This document shows positions 23,695-32,726 of a stretch of DNA of 64,000 nt, piece by piece. Below the pieces are notes generated by a model, which was not told the origin of the DNA, did no database searches, and worked only from the letters and a program-made list of their open reading frames with translations. The position numbers and the translations under genes were made by a program. Positions within the stretch are counted from its first letter, which is position 1. Every line of letters begins with the position of its first letter. The DNA is from Desulfurobacterium sp. TC5-1 (GTDB lineage Bacteria > Aquificota > Aquificia > Desulfurobacteriales > Desulfurobacteriaceae): contig NZ_ATXC01000001.1 in NCBI RefSeq assembly GCF_000421485.1, positions 62,001 through 126,000 of the forward strand, given 5' to 3'.

Positions 23695-24593
23695 AAGAGA
23701 TATTTCATCCGCCGGTTCTTTTAAATGAATCCATTGAGTTTTTAAAGGCTAAAGAAGGGGGAGTCTTTGTTGACGCTACACTCGGTGGAGGTGGCCATAC
23801 CGAGGCGATACTTGAGGCAAACCCTCAGAACAGAGTCATAGCCATAGATAGAGATGAAGAGGCAATAGATAGGGCTATAAAGAAGCTTGAGCGGTTTGGT
23901 GATAGGTTTTCCGTTTATCACGCAAACTTTGCGCAAATAGGCGTTGTTCTTGATGAAGAAGGGATAGATTTTGTTGACGGTATCCTTTTTGACCTTGGCG
24001 TTTCTCACTTCCAGTTAAGGGGAGACAGGGGCTTCTCCTTCTGGAAGGACGATCCTCTTGATATGAGGATGGACAGAAGCCAGAAGCTAACGGCTGCTGA
24101 TGTTGTTAATACTCTGCCGGAGAGAGAACTGGCGAACATCATATACCGCTACGGCGAGGAGAGATTTTCAAGGAAGATAGCAAGAGAAATAGTAAAGAGA
24201 CGAAGAGAAAAGCCGATAAAGACGACCCTTGAACTTGCGAAAATAGTTGAATCTGTTATACCTAAAAAACTCTGGGCTGGAAGAAAGAAGCATCCTGCCA
24301 CCAAAACCTTTCAGGCGATAAGAATCTACGTTAACAAGGAGCTTGAAAGCATTGAAGAGGCAATTCCCGAAGCAGTTGACAGGTTAAAACCCGGTGGAAG
24401 GATTGTTGTTATAACCTTTCACTCTCTTGAAGATAGAATAGTAAAGGAACTTTTAAAAGAGAGAAAAGACCTTAAAATAATTGCCAAGAAACCTGTTCTG
24501 CCGACTGAGGAAGAGATAGCAGCAAACCCTGCCGCAAGGAGTGCAAAGCTGAGAGCGGCTGAGAAGAAGGCACCCGCAGAGCTTGGAAATTAA
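23691..24593 (+). CDS. rsmH: 16S rRNA (cytosine1402-N4)-methyltransferase RsmH
   Basis: From the ATG at 23691, with AAAGGAG seven bases upstream, the protein has 300 residues; an in-frame TTG 18 bases earlier is less likely. SAM-binding motif DATLGGGGHTEAIL is at the N-terminus, and the DGILFDLGVSHFQL and RGFSFWKDDPLDMRM segments are diagnostic of RsmH (MraW). It methylates C1402 of 16S rRNA in the ribosomal P site. In many bacteria it heads the division/cell-wall cluster (ftsL, pbpB); here it instead ends a pheA-CDF-rsmH string and faces the convergent accessory island. Confidence 0.95.
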   Translation: MKEIFHPPVLLNESIEFLKAKEGGVFVDATLGGGGHTEAILEANPQNRVIAIDRDEEAIDRAIKKLERFGDRFSVYHANFAQIGVVLDEEGIDFVDGILFDLGVSHFQLRGDRGFSFWKDDPLDMRMDRSQKLTAADVVNTLPERELANIIYRYGEERFSRKIAREIVKRRREKPIKTTLELAKIVESVIPKKLWAGRKKHPATKTFQAIRIYVNKELESIEEAIPEAVDRLKPGGRIVVITFHSLEDRIVKELLKERKDLKIIAKKPVLPTEEEIAANPAARSAKLRAAEKKAPAELGN

Positions 24594-24603
24594 GGCAAGG
24601 TGT

Positions 24604-25287
24604 TTAAGTCGGCTTTTTTTCAAAGATTTCTTTTACTACTGTTTGTATGAAATTTTCGGGAACCTTTCCTATCAGGAACGGAGAAACCGAAAGTTTTTGT
24701 AAGGTATTTAATATCCCTTCGCTCTTTACAACTTTCTGCAAGTAAGCTGCCCTTTTTCTTAAGGTTTCTTCCTTTCTTTTTAAGAAATTCCTAAAGATCA
24801 GTCTGGTGCTTTCGGTTTTTAATGGATCTTTTAAAACGATGTAAGCATCCAAAAAATCTCTTATTTTTAAGCTTTCTGTTCTGTAAAAGAATTTTTTGAC
24901 AAGTATTTCTTCCGGTTGCTCTACAAATATTTCCATGTTTGAATCCAATGTTTTTTTGACAGGCAGTTTCCCGCTTAAATTTGGGGCAACTATAAAGTCT
25001 ATTTCTCTGTTTTCCACTAATATTTTTATAAAAACGGAAGATTCCTTGTAATCGGTAGCTATGCTTTCGGCGTATTCGTTAAGTCTTGGAGATAACATTG
25101 TGATGTATTGAGGATTTGTAAGAAATATATCAACATCTTTGCTTTCTCTGTGCCAGTACCGGAACATTAAAGCACTGCCGCCTCCGAAACTCCATTCATT
25201 ATAAGGAATTCCGGCAGTTTTTAGACAGCTTATTGCCTTGTTTAGTAAATCAAGAATTTCTAATTTCCACTTTAGAATATGTTCCAT
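24604..25287 (-). CDS. AbiEii-like nucleotidyltransferase (putative toxin)
   Basis: A 227-residue protein with a nucleotidyltransferase core: GGGSALMFRYW followed by DVDIF gives the GGS...DxD pattern of DNA polymerase beta-like enzymes, and a third acidic residue lies in EIDFIV. The family (DUF1814/AbiEii) includes the toxin of the AbiE system. The C-terminal third is helical and basic. It is the last gene of a three-gene set with a 90-residue protein, which it overlaps by 16 bases, and a Phd-like antitoxin. It may act as the toxin or growth arrest effector of the set; this is inference from family and order. It is convergent with rsmH. Confidence 0.75.
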   Translation of the reverse strand: MEHILKWKLEILDLLNKAISCLKTAGIPYNEWSFGGGSALMFRYWHRESKDVDIFLTNPQYITMLSPRLNEYAESIATDYKESSVFIKILVENREIDFIVAPNLSGKLPVKKTLDSNMEIFVEQPEEILVKKFFYRTESLKIRDFLDAYIVLKDPLKTESTRLIFRNFLKRKEETLRKRAAYLQKVVKSEGILNTLQKLSVSPFLIGKVPENFIQTVVKEIFEKKPT

Positions 25288-25544
25288 AATTCCTCTAACT
25301 CTTCATTGCGGAACTTTGGCTTTATATATCTCTCGTAATATTTTTTTAACTCTTTCATGTCTATTCCGTGTTTTTCACAAAACGACACAACCATGGAAAC
25401 AGGAACTTCGGAAAAGAAAACCTCTACCTGTTCGTTTAAAGGATAGCTTTTTGGGAAAATTTGCCCCTTTATAAGTTCCGCAAGCTTTTCCTCTGTTAGT
25501 CCTTTTCTGTATGCACGGTTAATTGTAACTATCGAAGGATCCAT
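25272..25544 (-). CDS. Small unknown protein, putative antitoxin of the nucleotidyltransferase
   Basis: This 90-residue protein lies between a Phd-like antitoxin and a nucleotidyltransferase, separated by 11 bases from the first and overlapping the second. It is mostly helical by eye (LTEEKLAELIKGQIF, DMKELKKYYERYI) with many charged residues. I recognise no domain. Small genes upstream of AbiEii-like nucleotidyltransferases often encode their antitoxins or cofactors, which is the basis for the tentative role. Confidence 0.65.
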   Translation of the reverse strand: MDPSIVTINRAYRKGLTEEKLAELIKGQIFPKSYPLNEQVEVFFSEVPVSMVVSFCEKHGIDMKELKKYYERYIKPKFRNEELEELWNIF

Positions 25545-25555
25545 TTTTCCTCCAG

Positions 25556-25750
25556 CTATAATAATTTACCATAATTAATTGCAACCTTTCTTATAGCATG
25601 TTCAAGTTCTTTTAGCTTTTCGTATTCTTCCACGGTTAGTATTACGAACTTTTTTCCTCTAACGGAGATAAAAACGTTCTCAAACTTCTTTAAAAGTTCA
25701 GATATGTAAGAGATACCTCTTCTTTTAAGCTCGTTTGCCGTTACGATCAT
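25556..25750 (-). CDS. Phd/YefM-like antitoxin
   Basis: A 64-residue protein with the Phd pattern: N-terminal MIVTANELKRRGISYI, then VFISVRGKKFVILTVEEYEKL, the strand-helix segment shared by Phd and YefM antitoxins. These bind DNA as dimers through the N-terminus and neutralise a toxin with the C-terminus. No Fic/Doc, RelE or PIN partner is adjacent; the following genes are a 90-residue unknown and a nucleotidyltransferase. That makes this an atypical combination. It is the first gene of the set, with its promoter in the AT-rich gap to its right. Confidence 0.72.
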   Translation of the reverse strand: MIVTANELKRRGISYISELLKKFENVFISVRGKKFVILTVEEYEKLKELEHAIRKVAINYGKLL

Positions 25751-25906
25751 TGCGTCCCCAAAAGTGCTCTTTATAGAAATATATCAGATACTGTTAAAAG
25801 TCTATTTGTTGGCTTTTTTGTATTTTCGTCAAGTTTTGGTTTATGCGACAGATACAGTCCTATTTTAAGGCTATTATTCTATTAAGACTTTGATGAGGGA
25901 GGATTG

Positions 25907-26113
25907 ATGATTATAAAAACAAGAACGCCGTACCTTGGGAAAAAGAAAATCTGGATGAGGTTTGTTACATCTACAGGAGATTACGAAAAATTCTACGAGA
26001 TAAGATTTCACAATATAGAAAAAGGGGCTTTTCTATACGAGATTGATGATGATTTTCCGAAAGATCTGATAGAACTTATCTTCGGTTATGGGGCAACTAT
26101 CTGGCATCGTTGA
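25907..26113 (+). CDS. Small unknown protein upstream of the PLD-HerA gene
   Basis: A 68-residue protein from the ATG at 25907, with GAGGGAGGA just upstream. It has beta-rich character, many aromatic and charged residues (WMRFVTSTGDYEKFYEIRF, GYGATIWHR), no membrane segment and no Cys. I do not recognise it. The 38-base gap to the PLD-HerA gene and the shared strand suggest an operon, so it might be a regulator or small partner of that ATPase. Confidence 0.6.
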   Translation: MIIKTRTPYLGKKKIWMRFVTSTGDYEKFYEIRFHNIEKGAFLYEIDDDFPKDLIELIFGYGATIWHR

Positions 26114-26151
26114 ATGTATAATTTAAAAAGTTTTAACGGGGAGGAGAAATT

Positions 26152-28146
26152 ATGAAAACATTAAAAAGTGATGAGATATACTCTTGCGTGGAATCAATGG
26201 TTAAGGAGGCTGAAAGAAGTGTAAAAATTTCCTCTGCCTGGTTAAAAGGGAGCATCGTTGATAAGCTGCTTTCAAATCTTCCTGACAGTGTGGAACTTGA
26301 AGTTATCCTTAGAGCTTCTGAGCTTCAGGATCTTCTCATAACTGACGATTACGTCTTTAGGAAGATAGAAGAAAAGGGAGGGCAGGTTTTTTTAAGCAAC
26401 AGGCTTCATGCAAAATTTATCCTTGTTGACGAGAAAAGGGCGGTTGTAGGTTCCGCAAACTTTACAGGTGCCGGGTTTTCAGGCTACGATTCAGGTAATA
26501 TAGAAGCTGCCGTTTACTATGATATTGATGACGATGAAGAAGAAGTAAAAGAGCTTTTTTCATACTTTGAACAGATAAAAAGTGATTCTGCAAAGTTTGA
26601 CGAGAACCTTTTAGGTTTTGCGATAAATCCTGTTAAATCCCGCTCTTTTGAGTTTATTCTCATTGAACCTGATGTAAAAGAACAATCTTATGTTGAAGTT
26701 AAGCATGGTGAAGGTACAATCCTTGCCAAGATTGTAACAATCTACTCCTATGATATGGGATTTTTTGCCAATCCTTTCTCTGCCGGTGAATCACCGGTTT
26801 TTGGTTCTGTTGATACGTTTAAGACCCTGTTTACAGGGAGGAAAGGGAAAGAGTGGAAGAAGGCTGCCGTGTGGTCTTACCTTAACGAGAACAGCGACAG
26901 GGTAAAAGTTGCCGTTGCAGAGGTTTTAGGAATTGTAAAGAACGGAAAACTTGAGACGAACATGGAACCTTTTGACGTGGGGGAACCTGTTTACCTTGCA
27001 TCTTCAGATACTCTGAGAAACCTTGTAAAAAGGACTTTTTCAGGTAAAAGTATGACCTATCCCGTTAAAGTGGGAACGTTTGAAGACGGTGAGCAGGAAG
27101 TTTTTATTGACGGCAAAGAGGTAATAACGAAACACATGCTTATTTTAGGTACAACAGGTTCGGGAAAGAGCCACTTCACAAAAATTTTCCTCTCACGGTT
27201 TTTAAAAGATTATCCCGTTCAAACCTTTATTTTTGATCCTCACGGCGAGTATTACGATGAACTTTCAGACTCCATTTCTCAGGAAGACATTATGCATGTT
27301 GTTTTTGAAGAAACCCTCTTTCCCATCCACCCTGATGAGGTGGAATGGCTTGTGAAAGAGGCAGGGTTTTCCTATCTTGTAAGCGGTAATTCCGGACTTG
27401 CAAGAGACAATAAAGCTTACCTTTCAAATCTTATAAAGCCATCACTTAAAAGAACTGTGTTTAAAGATGAAAATCTTTTGGACATTCTTTCAAAAGTAAA
27501 AGATGAAGTAGAGGAAGAAATAGAAACCTCAAACGGAAAACCGAAAAAGGTTAAAAAGCGTGTTTCTGCAGGTGTTGAGAAAGAGGCAGCAGAGATTTTT
27601 GGAGAAAAAATTTTAACCACTCAGGTAGAAACTTACAATCAGCTTATTTCGGCCGTTGAAAGCTCTAAAAAGGTAGTTATTTTCAACTTTTCCCGCGTAA
27701 CCGATCCCGTTACGAGGGTAAACATTGCAGGCCTTGCCATGCAGGAGCTCTTCAATCAGAACAAGGAACATAAGAAAGAAAGACTTATAGTCCTTGAAGA
27801 GGCTCACAATTTTGCACCTGAAGGAAGCTACGGCGATGTTTCAGCAGGAAAAGACAACCTTGCCCTAACCATGGCGAGAAAAATAGCATCAGAAGGAAGA
27901 AAATTTAATCTTGGACTTGTTGTAATCACTCAGAGGCCTGCGCAGGTCAGCAAGTACGTTCTATCACAGGCAAATACTCAGGCAATGTTCAGAACGATGA
28001 ACGTTTCAGACCTTGCCGCCGTTGAAACCTACGTAGAATTTGCCGGAAGAGATTTGATAGACCTTCTGCCCTCCCTTCAAACCGGAATGGGAATCCTGAG
28101 CGGTTTGGGTGTACCCTTTCCGGTAGTGGTGGAGGTGGACGGTTGA
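26152..28146 (+). CDS. Fusion of a PLD-family nuclease domain and a HerA-type ATPase
   Basis: This 664-residue protein begins with a PLD-superfamily domain (residues about 1-145): HAKFILVD with GSANFT downstream is the HxKx4D...GS(x)N motif of PLD nucleases, present once, so activity would need a dimer. A beta-barrel-like linker follows. From about residue 310 there is a HerA/FtsK-type ATPase with Walker A GTTGSGKSHF, the characteristic FDPHGEYYDEL, Walker B LIVLEEAHNFAPE, and ITQRPAQVS. HerA proteins are hexameric DNA translocases; in archaea HerA works with the NurA nuclease. Here the nuclease is fused and is PLD-type. Such HerA-nuclease pairs are common in defence islands; antiphage activity is an inference. 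The start has GGGGAGGAG upstream. Confidence 0.88.
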   Translation: MKTLKSDEIYSCVESMVKEAERSVKISSAWLKGSIVDKLLSNLPDSVELEVILRASELQDLLITDDYVFRKIEEKGGQVFLSNRLHAKFILVDEKRAVVGSANFTGAGFSGYDSGNIEAAVYYDIDDDEEEVKELFSYFEQIKSDSAKFDENLLGFAINPVKSRSFEFILIEPDVKEQSYVEVKHGEGTILAKIVTIYSYDMGFFANPFSAGESPVFGSVDTFKTLFTGRKGKEWKKAAVWSYLNENSDRVKVAVAEVLGIVKNGKLETNMEPFDVGEPVYLASSDTLRNLVKRTFSGKSMTYPVKVGTFEDGEQEVFIDGKEVITKHMLILGTTGSGKSHFTKIFLSRFLKDYPVQTFIFDPHGEYYDELSDSISQEDIMHVVFEETLFPIHPDEVEWLVKEAGFSYLVSGNSGLARDNKAYLSNLIKPSLKRTVFKDENLLDILSKVKDEVEEEIETSNGKPKKVKKRVSAGVEKEAAEIFGEKILTTQVETYNQLISAVESSKKVVIFNFSRVTDPVTRVNIAGLAMQELFNQNKEHKKERLIVLEEAHNFAPEGSYGDVSAGKDNLALTMARKIASEGRKFNLGLVVITQRPAQVSKYVLSQANTQAMFRTMNVSDLAAVETYVEFAGRDLIDLLPSLQTGMGILSGLGVPFPVVVEVDG

Positions 28147-28338
28147 TGATGGAGCTGGTGGCTACTTGGCAGCGCGTGGAAATTACTCAGGTACAATTAA
28201 GTTAGGCAAAAGGTACTTAGGGAAACAAAAACTCTTTCCATCCTTTGTAATAATTTTTCCATGATTCAAGAGCTTAATAGGACATTGGGTGTCCCATAAA
28301 ACAGATAGACTTCTCTCAAACCTTCAAGGGGTTAAGCT

Positions 28339-28896
28339 GTGAAGGAAATTACAAGATCTACGTTTGAAGATTTTGGCAACACCGATAAGGTTCTTGAAAT
28401 TCTTGAATTAGTTTCAAAAGAGCTTGCTGGCAATTATGTAGTTATAGGGGGATTGGCAGTTCGGACTTACGCTGGAAAAGTTAGAAAGTTGACTCCAGAT
28501 CTTGATTTTCTCGTAAAGCCTGAGGTTGAAGAAAAGGTTTTCTCTCTGTTCAGGCTAAGCAGAAACACACTCTGCGGCTCTGTATGGCTTGTCGGAAATG
28601 TAGATGGTGTTGAGGTTGACTTTCAGGTTGCAACAAAAAAGTTTGAAAATGGAATCATTGAAAGTGCAGAGACTTTTTGCGTTGATGACTTTTTTATAAA
28701 AGTGGCTAAACCTGAGCATCTGATTTTAATGAAACTCGGCGTTTTGAGGGAGAAGGATGAAATGGATATAGCTTTACTTTTGAAACGGAAAGAATTGGAC
28801 CTCGGAAAGCTGCTTGGACTTGTAAAGACTCATTTGCCGTCTGAAATTGATACGCTAAAGCAGTTTGTTTTGATGAGTAAGTTGGTAAAGGAGTAA
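28339..28896 (+). CDS. Nucleotidyltransferase-fold protein (second in the island)
   Basis: A 185-residue protein. VVIGGLAVRTYAG followed by PDLDFLV gives the GG(x)...DxD core of nucleotidyltransferases, with another acidic pair in VEVDFQV. It is related in fold but not closely in sequence to the AbiEii-like protein encoded at 24604-25287. The start is a GTG with AAGGGG eight bases upstream. The next gene begins four bases after it stops, so the two form a pair. It may be a toxin, an antitoxin-type regulator or a metabolic nucleotidyltransferase; nothing in the sequence decides. The 192-base gap before it shows no other gene. Confidence 0.7.
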   Translation: MKEITRSTFEDFGNTDKVLEILELVSKELAGNYVVIGGLAVRTYAGKVRKLTPDLDFLVKPEVEEKVFSLFRLSRNTLCGSVWLVGNVDGVEVDFQVATKKFENGIIESAETFCVDDFFIKVAKPEHLILMKLGVLREKDEMDIALLLKRKELDLGKLLGLVKTHLPSEIDTLKQFVLMSKLVKE

Positions 28897-28899
28897 AAG

Positions 28900-29541
28900 A
28901 TGGTGGAATGTGTCGTTGAGTTCTCTAAATGTCTTGAAGAAGTTTCAGCTTCTCAGTACGATAGAGTTATAAGTTTTATTGAAAGCCACTCATTCGTTAT
29001 GTTTACAGCACATAGAGAAAAGAGCCATATGGAAGGATGTAAACAAAATCTCAAATCTTTAATAAGAAATGTTTATAAGAAAGCAAATATACGAGCTATT
29101 CTATTGTATGGAACTGGTTTAAAAGGTGTGAGAGAAAATAAAATAATTCCTTTTAGTGAATGGACTACTCTATTTATCTTTAACAGAGAAAAGTTCCGGA
29201 CAAAAGCTGGAACTATTTTTGCCTATAAACTAAACAATTATAAAGAATTTTTGGAAGTTGTTAAAGAGGAGATAGTGAAATATGGCCAAAAATATCTCTT
29301 ATATAAGGAAAGTCCTGAGAGAGTAAATCTCTACAATTTAGAAACTAACAGTGTGGAAATTACTTATTCAAAATTTAAAGAAGCTATAGCTGGATTCTAC
29401 TGCAAAACAATAGATTCTTTCAACTTGGATAACTTCAAAATTTATATGAAGGGGCAAGAAGCTTACAATCACGGGATTTTTAGTATGATGGTATGTGCAC
29501 CGTATTATCCGAAATTAGATTTTTCGGGGGAAAATGAATAA
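28900..29541 (+). CDS. Unknown 213-residue partner of the nucleotidyltransferase
   Basis: I do not recognise this protein with confidence. It starts at an ATG with AAGGAG upstream, four bases after the nucleotidyltransferase. A stretch FVMFTAHREKSHMEGCKQNLKSL followed by YGTGLKG and a central FSEWTTLFIFN faintly recalls DUF3293-type proteins (TAxNP...N...L...G...E), but the match is weak. It is soluble, Lys- and Tyr-rich, with three Cys. It is convergent with the unknown 235-residue gene 48 bases away. The short gap to the nucleotidyltransferase suggests a two-gene system. Confidence 0.6.
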   Translation: MVECVVEFSKCLEEVSASQYDRVISFIESHSFVMFTAHREKSHMEGCKQNLKSLIRNVYKKANIRAILLYGTGLKGVRENKIIPFSEWTTLFIFNREKFRTKAGTIFAYKLNNYKEFLEVVKEEIVKYGQKYLLYKESPERVNLYNLETNSVEITYSKFKEAIAGFYCKTIDSFNLDNFKIYMKGQEAYNHGIFSMMVCAPYYPKLDFSGENE

Positions 29542-29589
29542 TTTATTAAATGGAAGCCAAAAAGAATGGTCGGTTTTACTCCAATCATT

Positions 29590-30297
29590 TTAACCTCTCC
29601 AATCAATTTTTGTTTCTTGCGATATGTTTAGGGAAATACAGGCTTCTTTTATGTCTTTTATCTGTAGAACTTCGTTTCTGCATGTTTCCTGCAGGTATTT
29701 AAAATTGTTTAGAAATAGAGAATGTCTGAGAGAATTTGAAATATTTTGTTTTACCCTTTTCTGTGATTTAGAATAAATATAGGGGATAAATTTAAAATCG
29801 CTGGATGAAAATAGTTCTATTTCGTATCTTTCGTTTTTTGGAATAAACCAGACGTTTAAATTGAAAGTGTATTTATCAAGATTTCCAAAGTAGGCATTAA
29901 TGAGTTCATCCCGCAGGGTGTAAGCTTTTGTTTCAAGGTCTATCAGCCATTGTTTTATGTTGTTGCATTCAGGCTTTTCAAATAGCTGGTAGCAGGATGT
30001 TATTTTTATCATTGCCGTGCTGATGTTTTCAATCTCTGAAATTGATAGATTAGTTGTTATCCACATTTCAATTTCTTCCAAGATTTTTATACTATTCTCT
30101 CTGCTTATGTAATCTTTGAGGGATACTGAAAATGAAAGAGCTTCTTCTTTACTTTCAAACAGAATCAAATCGCATTCAATTTCAAAATCATGAATTTTTC
30201 TCAAGGAATAGAAATTCGATAATTTTGCATACTCTTTTAATCCTCTCGGCAGGACGTTTTTCCCTAATTTTACGGTTAACTGCCTTATTCTATTCAT
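29590..30297 (-). CDS. Unknown 235-residue partner of an AAA+ ATPase
   Basis: The protein has no motif I recognise. It has a basic N-terminus (MNRIRQLTVKLGKNVLPRG), a helical middle with three Cys, and a basic C-terminal part. AGAGGC upstream of the ATG serves as ribosome-binding site. It starts nine bases after the AAA+ ATPase gene ends and on the same strand, so they are almost certainly cotranscribed. It might be the effector or substrate adaptor of that ATPase. Its base composition is A+T-rich compared with the housekeeping genes around the island, which fits recent acquisition. Confidence 0.62.
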   Translation of the reverse strand: MNRIRQLTVKLGKNVLPRGLKEYAKLSNFYSLRKIHDFEIECDLILFESKEEALSFSVSLKDYISRENSIKILEEIEMWITTNLSISEIENISTAMIKITSCYQLFEKPECNNIKQWLIDLETKAYTLRDELINAYFGNLDKYTFNLNVWFIPKNERYEIELFSSSDFKFIPYIYSKSQKRVKQNISNSLRHSLFLNNFKYLQETCRNEVLQIKDIKEACISLNISQETKIDWRG

Positions 30298-30306
30298 TTT
30301 TGCCTC

Positions 30307-31383
30307 TTAGAATCCTATTTCTTTAGAGTAGGCTTTTATTCTTTTGGAAATGGTTTTGTCTATCAGGTAATCTTTTTTAATGATTCTTTTTCTATCTATA
30401 TAATCTAAAATCTCTGATACTTTTAATTCTTCTACGGTTTCAAAAAGTTCAAGTCCGGGAGAAAGTTCCGGGTATTTTTTGCAGAGGGATTCAAAATATT
30501 CCTTCGGAATGGGTTTAAGCTCTAAAATGTCAAACAGTCTGCTTGGTCGAAGCAGTGCAGGGTCTATTTCTTTAAGTCTTTTGTTGGTGCTTATTATTAT
30601 TTTGGCTTTTTTAGGTAAGAATCCGTCTGTTACTGAAAGGATCGTTGAGACTATATCAGATACGATTTCGTCACGTCTAAAGTCATCAAGTATTACAAGG
30701 TCGTTTTCTATATATGTATTTACTTCGTCAGCATTGGACTTAAAAGCATTTTTCCCTTTTAGCATTAATATTTTTACTTTCTTATTTAAAATGTGCTGGC
30801 TCCTTCCGATGATGTATTGGATTAATTTGCTTTTCCCCGTTCCCGGCTCTCCAAAAAGTATTAAGATTCCCTGAGGTGCTCTGAGGAAGGCGTTTGCCAA
30901 TTCTTCAACGTCAATGCCGTAAAATAGCTCCCTTATTAACGGATTTAAAAATTCCTCAGCTTCAAGATAGTAGTTTATTGATCTCCGCCAGCTGGCATCA
31001 ATCCTTATATAAATATGGCTTTTGTCTAAACTTTCTGCTTTTAATATTTCGCATACTCTTGAAATTACCGGCCTGTCATCTTCGGTAGGCGCGTAAGAGA
31101 AATTAACTTCTATGAATTTATCATCATACAGGGAATTGTCCCAGTCTATCTTCAGAATACCAACGGGTTTGTCACCTTTGAAGATAAAAATGCTGTTAAT
31201 TACAAAAGCATTTTTAAAAATGGTTTCTTCAGTATAGACCCTGTACTCAGGGTACTGCTGTTCTATTAAGAATATTATGGATTTTAATACATCTAAAACG
31301 TTTTCCCTTATCAGAAAGTTCTTACGCGGGAAAAACTCCTTTAAATAAACCTGAGATATGATTCCTTTATTTTCCATTTCCAC
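30307..31383 (-). CDS. AAA+ ATPase with a novel-looking N-terminal domain
   Basis: The 358-residue protein has an AAA+ module from about residue 150 to 290: Walker A LFGEPGTGKSKL, Walker B DLVILDDFRRDE, sensor 1 KIIISTNKR, and an LRPSRLFDILE segment that corresponds to the LRPGRFD box of classical AAA proteins. The N-terminal 150 residues (with FKGDKPVGILKIDWDN) match nothing I know. The C-terminal part is a basic helical region. Classical AAA ATPases remodel proteins; this one lacks a protease domain and a transmembrane segment. Together with the cotranscribed 235-residue gene it forms a two-gene unit inside an island of defence-like genes. Confidence 0.75.
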   Translation of the reverse strand: MEMENKGIISQVYLKEFFPRKNFLIRENVLDVLKSIIFLIEQQYPEYRVYTEETIFKNAFVINSIFIFKGDKPVGILKIDWDNSLYDDKFIEVNFSYAPTEDDRPVISRVCEILKAESLDKSHIYIRIDASWRRSINYYLEAEEFLNPLIRELFYGIDVEELANAFLRAPQGILILFGEPGTGKSKLIQYIIGRSQHILNKKVKILMLKGKNAFKSNADEVNTYIENDLVILDDFRRDEIVSDIVSTILSVTDGFLPKKAKIIISTNKRLKEIDPALLRPSRLFDILELKPIPKEYFESLCKKYPELSPGLELFETVEELKVSEILDYIDRKRIIKKDYLIDKTISKRIKAYSKEIGF

Positions 31384-31513
31384 CTTTCTCTCCTTATTTG
31401 ATTTATTTCTTTTGAAAAGATATGGAAACTATTGGACATTAAATGACTAATTGCGAAGGGATTTTATGGTTGCTGGAACGATGGATTTAACGGTGTATTA
31501 ATGCCGGGGTGAG

Positions 31514-32620
31514 TCACAAGTGGTCAATATTGCTGATGAGCTTCTGCCTCTGTTTTATGAGCGTGTCAAATGTTTTCAGGAATGATTGAAAGCGTTTTCT
31601 GTTTTCTTTTAGCGAGTAGATTAGTTCAGGGTAGTGTTTTGTAAGCTCTTTTTCTTTAGCTTTTTTGATTATGCTTTTGTCGGGTGGGAGGATTTCTATT
31701 ATTTCCTCAACTAAGAATCTGCTTGCAAAGCGGTATCCTGTGAATCCAACGAGGAATACTTCAAAATGTCTCTCTTCTTCCTTTTTTAGGTAGAATTGGG
31801 TCGGGAATAAGAGGGGATTTTTGAAAAAGCTCAGGGATTCTTTAAATGCAACTCTTGCACCGAAAAGGAAAGGCTTTTCTTCTTCAAACAGAAATGTTGT
31901 TTTTCGGAATTTGCGGGATAAGAATTTGTCTGGTTTTTCCGAATGTTTGTCTATGATTTTTAGCCCTGAAATGTGAAAAGTTCTGAAAGTTTTGTTTTCA
32001 ATGAGTGCACACAGGTACATTATGCCGTTATAGACAAAAACTTTTAACGGCTGAATTTTGAAAAACTCGGAACCCTTGTAACTTACAATTAATGACATGC
32101 CTTCTATGATTGCTTCGTAGATTAATTTCAGGTCTTTTTGATTTACATCTACGAATTTTTCAAGGAATTGAGGTTCATACACGAAAGAGAACTCTATGCG
32201 TTCCAGCTTTTCCTTGTTGAATTCCTTTTGCAGGCGCTTTATCAGGTTAACAAACGGTTTAAATATTTCAATGTTTCTGTAGTTCTCAGGTATGAAACTG
32301 CTAAAAGTAAGCAGGGATACCAGCTCTTCTTCTGTTATGGATGTTAAAACGGGAAATGCTTTCTGGTTTGCACGCCACTCTTGAGCTTTTCTTCCCTTTA
32401 TTTCCGGGTATTTTGATTCTGCGTATCCTATGCTTTCAAGGAACTGCAGCGCCCTGTTGAGTTTCCTTCTCTCTTTCCCTGCCGGGTTTTTGTCAGATAA
32501 AATCCCGTTTGCGAATAGTCGTTCATGAATTTCTCTTGTCGTTATGAAGCTGCCACTTTGAAGGAGTATTTTTAGTATTTCTATTAATAGTTCTGCTTTT
32601 GTGTGTTCTTCGGCTGCCGT
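31514..32620 (-). CDS. WYL-domain transcriptional regulator with a non-standard start
   Basis: The reading frame is open from 32629 to 31514. It encodes an N-terminal winged helix (LLIEILKILLQSGSFITTRE ... LNRALQFLESIGYAES), and a C-terminal part resembling a WYL domain (MSLIVSYKGSEFFKIQPLKV, NGIMYLCAL). No ATG, GTG or TTG occurs in this frame until a GTG at 32182, which would cut off the whole DNA-binding domain. However, TTGAGGAT lies five bases before an ACG at 32620, exactly where an ATG is expected, so ACG is the likely start, or the start codon has mutated. WYL regulators often repress defence islands and respond to nucleic acids or nucleotides. The product from ACG has 368 residues. 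Confidence 0.72.
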   Translation of the reverse strand, partial: TAAEEHTKAELLIEILKILLQSGSFITTREIHERLFANGILSDKNPAGKERRKLNRALQFLESIGYAESKYPEIKGRKAQEWRANQKAFPVLTSITEEELVSLLTFSSFIPENYRNIEIFKPFVNLIKRLQKEFNKEKLERIEFSFVYEPQFLEKFVDVNQKDLKLIYEAIIEGMSLIVSYKGSEFFKIQPLKVFVYNGIMYLCALIENKTFRTFHISGLKIIDKHSEKPDKFLSRKFRKTTFLFEEEKPFLFGARVAFKESLSFFKNPLLFPTQFYLKKEEERHFEVFLVGFTGYRFASRFLVEEIIEILPPDKSIIKKAKEKELTKHYPELIYSLKENRKRFQSFLKTFDTLIKQRQKLISNIDHL

Positions 32621-32628
32621 GGTGTATC

Positions 32629-32654
32629 CTCAATATCTATTTATTGAGATTATA
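32629..32654 (-). promoter_or_regulatory. Promoter -10 box and inverted-repeat operator of the WYL regulator
   Basis: On the minus strand TATAAT (32654-32649) is followed at once by an inverted repeat whose arms CTCAATA and TATTGAG (32648-32642 and 32635-32629) are separated by six bases. The repeat covers the predicted transcription start. A regulator bound there would block initiation, so autorepression by the WYL protein is a reasonable inference. The -35 region is poorly conserved. Confidence 0.5.
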
Positions 32655-32726
32655 ACTGATGTTCTGTTTGCCTTATCAGAAATTTAACCTAAATTCCCCT
32701 TTGCAAGTCTTATTCGAGGGTCGTTT

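What the first reader, a model, noticed from the sequence alone, without database searches (positions are those of the whole stretch)
26152..28146. PLD-family nuclease domain fused to a HerA-type translocase, with a 68-residue upstream gene
HerA normally pairs with NurA. Here a single-motif PLD domain replaces the nuclease in the same chain, so the hexameric translocase would carry six nuclease domains or three dimers. HerA associations with PLD proteins have been noted before, so the idea is not new, but this architecture with a small unknown partner deserves study as a candidate antiphage machine.
Basis: partly seen in the sequence, partly recalled or inferred. Interest (0 to 1): 0.6.

Follow-up and report, generated by a model that had tools for sequence, protein, structure and literature searches.

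The report
Self-armed DNA pump in Aquificota
The gene encodes a ring-forming DNA pump (HerA) with its own DNA-cutting domain built into the same chain; such fusions turn out to be widespread in a phylum of heat-loving bacteria, and this particular copy sits in a removable island of defence-like genes, so it is probably an anti-virus machine, while the small neighbour gene is not a fixed partner.

Summary
Window 26152-28146 (+) encodes 664 aa: an N-terminal single-motif PLD nuclease domain (H86xK88, D93, S101, N103), a HAS barrel, and a HerA/DUF87 translocase with intact Walker A/B. A 68-aa gene ends 38 bp upstream. Catalytic residues of both halves are invariant in 38 homologues.

The fusion is not a one-off. 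It forms one clade in most Aquificota, with a few transfers to other phyla, and has two branches. A 'core' branch is chromosomal in Hydrogenothermaceae- and Aquificaceae-like genomes, where it is often the only HerA and coexists with NurA. The window's branch is patchy (12 of 22 genomes of its family), always additional to a canonical HerA and NurA there. It sits in an 8.1-kb insertion that a same-genus genome lacks. Relatives lie beside type III-A CRISPR, type III R-M or toxin genes.

So PLD does not simply replace NurA, and the small gene is adjacent in only one other genome, of the same genus. I judge the window copy to be an accessory, probably antiviral, single-chain nuclease-translocase (about 0.6). 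Neither activity nor defence was tested. It is a new variant of the known HerA-effector theme.

The parts
26152..28146 (+). PLD-HerA fusion protein, 664 aa
   Evidence: ribosome-binding-like GGGGAGGAG just upstream
26152..26586 (+). N-terminal PLD-like nuclease domain (residues 1-145)
   Evidence: Pfam PLDc_2 5.3e-11 and PLDc 4.5e-07; helix/strand pattern in the model
26407..26460 (+). HKD-type motif H86xK88(x4)D93...G100 S101 x N103
   Evidence: H86, K88, D93, S101 and N103 invariant in 38 homologues of both branches
26590..27021 (+). HAS-barrel region (residues about 147-290, with a poorly predicted insert about 204-250)
   Evidence: weak Pfam HAS-barrel; strands in the model and whole-chain fold match to HerA structures
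27061..28143 (+). HerA/FtsK-type RecA-like core with helical insert and C-terminal part (residues 304-664)
   Evidence: DUF87 1.9e-24; phmmer to solved HerA structures; fold match
27148..27171 (+). Walker A GTTGSGKS (residues 333-340)
   Evidence: G333, T335, G336, G338 and K339 invariant
27787..27807 (+). Walker B IVLEEAH (residues 546-552)
   Evidence: E549 and E550 invariant
27892..27903 (+). EGRK (residues 581-584), candidate arginine-finger region
   Evidence: invariant; role inferred from HerA family knowledge
25907..26113 (+). 68-aa gene of unknown function, 38 bp upstream; adjacent to the fusion only within the genus
   Evidence: single-sequence model of low confidence (pLDDT 68) with no fold match
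24566..32685 (.). 8.1-kb variable island between rsmH and the 80-aa/RNA-methyltransferase genes; the site is empty in same-genus G003
   Evidence: window 24565 and 32686 are 27 bp apart in G003:C11
24604..25287 (-). AbiEii-like nucleotidyltransferase (type IV TA toxin family)
   Evidence: Pfam AbiEii 3.9e-12
25272..25544 (-). 90-aa gene overlapping the AbiEii-like gene (possible antitoxin)
   Evidence: position only; homologue next to AbiEii in G001 and in G003
25556..25750 (-). 64-aa Phd/YefM-like antitoxin
   Evidence: PhdYeFM_antitox 2.1e-06, slightly below the curated cut-off
28339..28896 (+). nucleotidyltransferase-like gene (DUF6036/DUF2204)
30307..31383 (-). AAA ATPase, island cargo
   Evidence: Pfam AAA 1.6e-08
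31514..32182 (-). WYL-domain regulator, 222 aa, truncated against a 372-aa homologue in G001

Best explanation
This is a single-chain nuclease-translocase. The HerA part forms a ring, probably a hexamer, that pumps double-stranded DNA using ATP. The PLD domain, joined to the HAS barrel with almost no linker, sits on the face where separate effectors (NurA, DUF4297) dock on other HerAs. The PLD domains pair (a two-site HKD centre is made from two chains, so up to three pairs per ring) and cut the DNA fed to them through a covalent phospho-histidine, without a metal. The window copy is an accessory version carried in an exchangeable island and most likely degrades invading DNA; the core version in other Aquificota probably works in DNA-end processing or DNA degradation alongside NurA. 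Shown here: architecture, intact and conserved active sites, island location, distribution. Inferred: hexamer, PLD pairing, DNA as substrate, defence role, trigger.
For: PLD and HerA catalytic residues invariant across 38 homologues. Good AF2 model whose best fold matches are HerAs of HerA-NurA, SIR2-HerA and DUF4297-HerA complexes. In a solved DUF4297-HerA complex the effector docks on the HAS domains (PMC11291478). Empty site in same-genus G003. Patchy in family f1, 12 of 22 genomes, always besides canonical HerA and NurA. Neighbours of the window's branch: type III-A Csm operon directly upstream in G018 and G008, type III R-M genes in G007 and G046, McrB-like AAA, second HerA and trypsin-like genes in G020, AbiEii/Phd genes in the window, PIN/AbiEii/Fic on Aquifex plasmid ece1. 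Core-branch neighbours are mostly housekeeping (rpmB, obg).
Against: No activity or phage test exists. The neighbours differ from genome to genome, so no defence operon is conserved. Some window-branch copies lie among housekeeping genes (G079, G098). In f4 genera g19 and g21 a window-branch copy is the only HerA, beside NurA. The f1 copies form one clade, which also fits vertical inheritance with losses. NCBI's antiphage HerA models match far below their cut-offs (117 bits against 800).
Confidence: 0.6

Rival explanations
1. It is mainly a DNA-repair or end-processing enzyme (a HerA-NurA equivalent) in all branches, and the island location of the window copy is incidental.
For: The core branch is conserved in f3 and f4. 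In many f4 genomes it is the only DUF87 HerA. In f4 genomes at least 90% complete, compiled by hand: 34 have fusion and NurA, 0 fusion without NurA, 4 NurA without fusion, 5 neither. In g9/g22 of f3 the order is rpmB - fusion - obg - (1-2 genes) - nurA on one strand.
Against: The window's family keeps a canonical HerA and NurA in all 22 genomes, so the fusion is dispensable there. It lies in an island that is absent at the same site of G003. HerA-NurA itself may be a defence enzyme rather than a resection enzyme (PMC12977600).
Confidence: 0.25
2. The 68-aa gene is a specific partner, such as an inhibitor, antitoxin or adaptor of the fusion protein.
For: Adjacent, same strand, 38 bp apart, each with a ribosome-binding-like sequence. 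Adjacent also in G001. All 8 f1 genomes with a clear homologue also carry the fusion, against 12 of 22 overall (exact probability about 0.0015 without correction for kinship or incomplete genomes).
Against: In the 6 other genomes the homologue lies at another place, beside GmrSD, a WYL regulator or leuA. Four f1 genomes have the fusion without it. It is absent near every core-branch copy examined. Kinship explains part of the co-occurrence (three of the eight are one genus).
Confidence: 0.12
3. The fusion is an effector or helper recruited by CRISPR type III or R-M systems rather than a stand-alone system.
For: In G018 its ORF overlaps the end of csm5, and in G008 it follows csm5 on the same strand. 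PADLOC's 'Type III coevolved' HerA model matches at 2.6e-18. In G046 a type III methyltransferase gene starts 12 bp downstream.
Against: Most window-branch loci have neither. PADLOC generic HerA models match better (2.9e-47). The partners differ between genomes, as expected of an ordinary defence island.
Confidence: 0.1
4. The PLD domain acts on something other than DNA (lipid, RNA) or only holds the ring together.
For: The sequence alone does not fix the PLD substrate; the PDB hit of the domain alone is a phospholipase, by a short active-site stretch (8e-04).
Against: Best family kin are nucleases or defence proteins (DrmC 2.8e-12, NucT 2.8e-07, NgoFVII 0.0017). The catalytic residues are invariant, which a purely structural role does not need. 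It is fused to a DNA translocase.
Confidence: 0.08

Closest known systems
HerA-NurA (DNA-end processing or antiviral nuclease)
   Same: HerA translocase with HAS barrel; a nuclease expected at the HAS face; best fold match 9x1m
   Different: Nuclease is PLD, not NurA, and is part of the same chain; NurA is still encoded elsewhere in most genomes
DUF4297-HerA and SIR2-HerA (Nezha) antiphage systems
   Same: HerA ring joined to an effector at the HAS face, in accessory loci; strong fold matches (8xav, 8wld, 8zir)
   Different: There the effector is a separate gene and a different fold, and the complex is two-component
PLD restriction enzymes of the NgoFVII / CglI kind
   Same: PLD nuclease coupled to an NTP-driven DNA motor (CglI: PMC5737866)
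   Different: There the motor is an SF2 helicase in a second protein with a B3 target-recognition domain; here there is no recognition domain and the motor is HerA
HerA/FtsK capture systems (DndH and relatives)
   Same: Nuclease joined to a HerA/FtsK ATPase in one chain, proposed to intercept invading DNA (PMC10853773)
   Different: DndH uses a REase fold and several DNA-binding domains; that paper does not mention PLD
DISARM DrmC
   Same: PLD domain; best PADLOC hit for the N-terminal part (2.8e-12)
   Different: DrmC is a separate protein of a multi-gene system; no DISARM model hit among the listed neighbours
Aquifex aeolicus plasmid ece1 genes AQ_RS08880 / AQ_RS08875
   Same: Same fusion, 54% identical
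   Different: Broken by stops or frameshift; an intact core-branch copy is on the chromosome

Membership tests
HerA/DUF87 translocase | HAS barrel plus RecA-like core with Walker A/B | tested here: met
HerA/DUF87 translocase | ring assembly and DNA translocation | not testable with these tools
   only monomer prediction was available
PLD superfamily nuclease | HxK(x)4D...GSxN motif | tested here: met
   invariant in 38 homologues
PLD superfamily nuclease | two motifs brought together (dimer) and DNA cleavage | not testable with these tools
   one motif per chain; needs multimer modelling or assay
HerA-NurA | NurA encoded as the partner next to this HerA | tested here: not met
   in the window's genome NurA is about 0.5 Mb away; in f3 g9/g22 the core branch does lie within about 3 kb of nurA
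NCBI anti-phage-associated HerA (NF042943/NF042944) | score above the curated cut-off | tested here: not met
   117 of 800 and 83 of 850 bits
SIR2-HerA / DUF4297-HerA systems | adjacent SIR2 or DUF4297 gene | tested here: not met
   Pfam scan of the neighbours in the window
DISARM (DrmC) | drmA/B/MTase genes alongside and DrmC score above cut-off | tested here: not met
   35 of 133 bits; no such genes found beside the fusion
Type III CRISPR accessory gene | consistent linkage to type III cas genes | tested here: inconclusive
   linked in G018 and G008 only
Two-gene unit with the 68-aa protein | conserved adjacency across genera | tested here: not met
   adjacent only in G000 and G001
Antiphage defence system | protection against phage | not testable with these tools
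   needs phage challenge

The most novel reading that the evidence does not exclude
Aquificota-wide, a HerA that carries its own PLD nuclease became a core machine and in Aquificaceae the only HerA, working together with NurA as a two-nuclease DNA processor, while a sister branch was turned into a mobile defence weapon. That would be a documented exchange between housekeeping DNA processing and immunity inside one protein family.
Probability: 0.3. Interest if true: 0.65.

Novelty: new variant of a known kind. Interest (0 to 1): 0.45.

Why it matters
Known HerA systems use a separate effector that must dock on the ring. A built-in nuclease fixes the stoichiometry and gives a one-gene construct for asking how a DNA pump and a nuclease are coupled. 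The conserved core branch also raises a testable question that the databases leave open: what performs HerA's job in Aquificaceae, which lack the canonical protein yet usually keep NurA.

Tried and rejected
Co-occurrence of the small gene as proof of partnership: adjacency fails outside the genus. 'PLD replaces NurA': NurA is present in the window's genome and in most genomes with the fusion. Phage origin: no match in the phage collection, and viral contigs give only HerA-domain matches. CRISPR array, tRNA or known RNA at the island: none found near it. Promoter and terminator scan: no more sites than in shuffled sequence. Fold of the small protein: low-confidence model, no match with E below 0.5. 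Literature: no paper found with 'PLD-HerA'; the 2004 FtsK-HerA survey is not held, so an earlier mention of PLD-linked HerA could not be checked. The statement that a region is free of defence genes rests on lists cut at 25 families, so the PADLOC contrast between the two branches (71 families against 8) is only indicative; most of the 71 are redundant Cas models from two loci.

Full report
What is there. The ORF at 26152-28146 (+) encodes 664 residues. Pfam finds a PLD domain at 16-142, a weak HAS barrel at 163-263 and the HerA central domain at 305-529. The AlphaFold2 model from 38 sequences is good (pLDDT 86.7), with a poorly predicted insert at about 204-250. The strands of the HAS region begin at residue 147, directly after the last helix of the PLD domain (129-145), so there is almost no linker. 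Foldseek's best matches are HerA chains of HerA-NurA, the S. solfataricus HerA hexamer, and the SIR2-HerA and DUF4297-HerA antiphage complexes. The PLD catalytic residues H86, K88, D93, S101, N103 and the ATPase residues (Walker A 333-340, E549/E550, EGRK 581-584) are invariant in 38 homologues.

Distribution. Of 136 genomes of the phylum, 110 match the query at E 1e-3 or better, but part of these are canonical HerA only. Full-length fusions fall into two branches. In the tree the fusions separate from canonical HerA with full support (SH-aLRT 100, quick search), which fits one origin of the fusion although the sampling of other phyla is thin. The core branch (34-39% identical to the window protein) holds f3 and f4 sequences (families whose named members are Hydrogenothermaceae and Aquificaceae). 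The window's branch holds 11 f1 sequences as one clade (98), f4 sequences, an Acidobacteriota MAG (L109) and, with lower support, WOR-3 MAGs (L111, L146). Other full-length fusions are in MAG contigs labelled Thermotogota (L139), Archaeoglobaceae (L122), Desulfobacterales (L173) and an unclassified bacterium (L135). MAG labels on short contigs may be wrong. Among plasmids only Aquifex aeolicus ece1 has the whole fusion, and there it is broken.

Relation to NurA and canonical HerA. All 22 genomes of the window's family have a canonical HerA and a NurA match; 12 also have the fusion (in G006 it is split in two frames). In family f4, complete genomes such as G028, G029, G030, G031 and G048 have one strong DUF87 HerA and it is the fusion. 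Compiled by hand for f4 genomes at least 90% complete: 34 with fusion and NurA, 0 with fusion alone, 4 with NurA alone (one of these, G068, has another DUF87 protein beside a NurA-like gene), 5 with neither. Genus g16 supplies four of the five, so this is about two independent events, not strong statistics. In f3 genera g9 and g22 the order rpmB - fusion - obg - (0-2 genes) - nurA is conserved on one strand; four f3 genomes without the fusion have nurA away from obg, but in f4 G028 obg and nurA are adjacent without it. The simple reading 'PLD replaces NurA' therefore fails.

The island. In same-genus G003 the sequences matching window positions 24565 and 32686 lie 27 bp apart. The 8.1 kb between them in the window holds an AbiEii-like gene with a small overlapping gene, a Phd-like antitoxin, the 68-aa gene, the fusion, a nucleotidyltransferase-like gene, two genes of unknown function, an AAA ATPase and a WYL regulator. 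In G002 a DNA-methyltransferase-like ORF (my reading of its motif, not scanned) follows rsmH at the same site. No integrase or tRNA was found there.

Neighbours in relatives. In G018 the fusion ORF overlaps the end of csm5 of a type III-A operon, and in G008 it follows csm5 (Cas10 1.8e-131 and 4.8e-126). In G007 rmuC, and a type III-like methyltransferase and Res pair, lie beside it. In G046 a type III methyltransferase starts 12 bp downstream. In G020 a McrB-like AAA protein, a second HerA and a trypsin-like protein follow. Core-branch neighbours are mostly housekeeping genes. This is the usual pattern of an accessory defence gene, though several window-branch copies (G079, G098) lie among ordinary genes.

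The small gene. Homologues at E below 1e-10 exist in 8 f1 genomes, all of which also have the fusion; only in G000 and G001 are the two adjacent. Elsewhere they lie beside a WYL regulator, a GmrSD protein or between leuA and a rhomboid gene. It looks like a mobile small gene of the same pool of islands, not a fixed subunit.

Mechanism. From the HerA complexes solved by others I infer a ring that pumps duplex DNA towards PLD domains on the HAS face, where pairs of PLD domains cut. Pairing, DNA substrate and trigger are inference. PLD nucleases generally act without metal through a phospho-histidine (general knowledge of the family).

Novelty. HerA-effector coupling, PLD nucleases coupled to motors (CglI) and nuclease-HerA fusions (DndH) are known. 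I found no description of the PLD-HerA fusion family in the held literature, and no named family model reached its cut-off for the whole protein. I file it as a new variant of a known kind.

Noticed in passing
G018 (L092:3788-11762) and G008 (L082:1003-10079): The fusion stands directly downstream of a type III-A Csm operon; in G018 the ORFs overlap.
   Followed up: partly
Aquificaceae-like genomes (f4), for example G028, G029, G030, G031, G048: No canonical HerA; the PLD-HerA fusion is the only strong DUF87 HerA, while NurA is kept. Genus g16 lacks both; part of g11 keeps NurA with no HerA.
   Followed up: partly
window 31514-32182: WYL regulator of 222 aa is truncated against a 372-aa homologue in G001 (L200:5426-6544); WYL homologues recur near the fusion or the small gene in other f1 genomes.
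   Followed up: partly
window 29590-31383: Pair of a 235-aa unknown protein (weak BrxF resemblance, 0.003) and an AAA ATPase; a homologue of the 235-aa protein is next to the small gene in G006 (L059:4958-5737).
   Followed up: no
window 28339-29541: DUF6036/DUF2204 nucleotidyltransferase-like gene followed by a 213-aa unknown gene, possibly another toxin-antitoxin pair.
   Followed up: no
L085:2177-8469 (G020): McrB-like AAA protein, a second HerA (PADLOC 'Type III coevolved', 5e-41) and a trypsin-like protein resembling RT-Protease XI form a row: a candidate separate defence system.
   Followed up: no
G002:C97 (L199:2032-3102): A DNA-methyltransferase-like ORF occupies the same insertion site after rsmH, so the site may be a hotspot.
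   Followed up: partly
Aquifex aeolicus plasmid ece1, NC_001880 26335-28291: A broken copy of the fusion, annotated as two genes, among PIN, AbiEii and Fic genes.
   Followed up: partly
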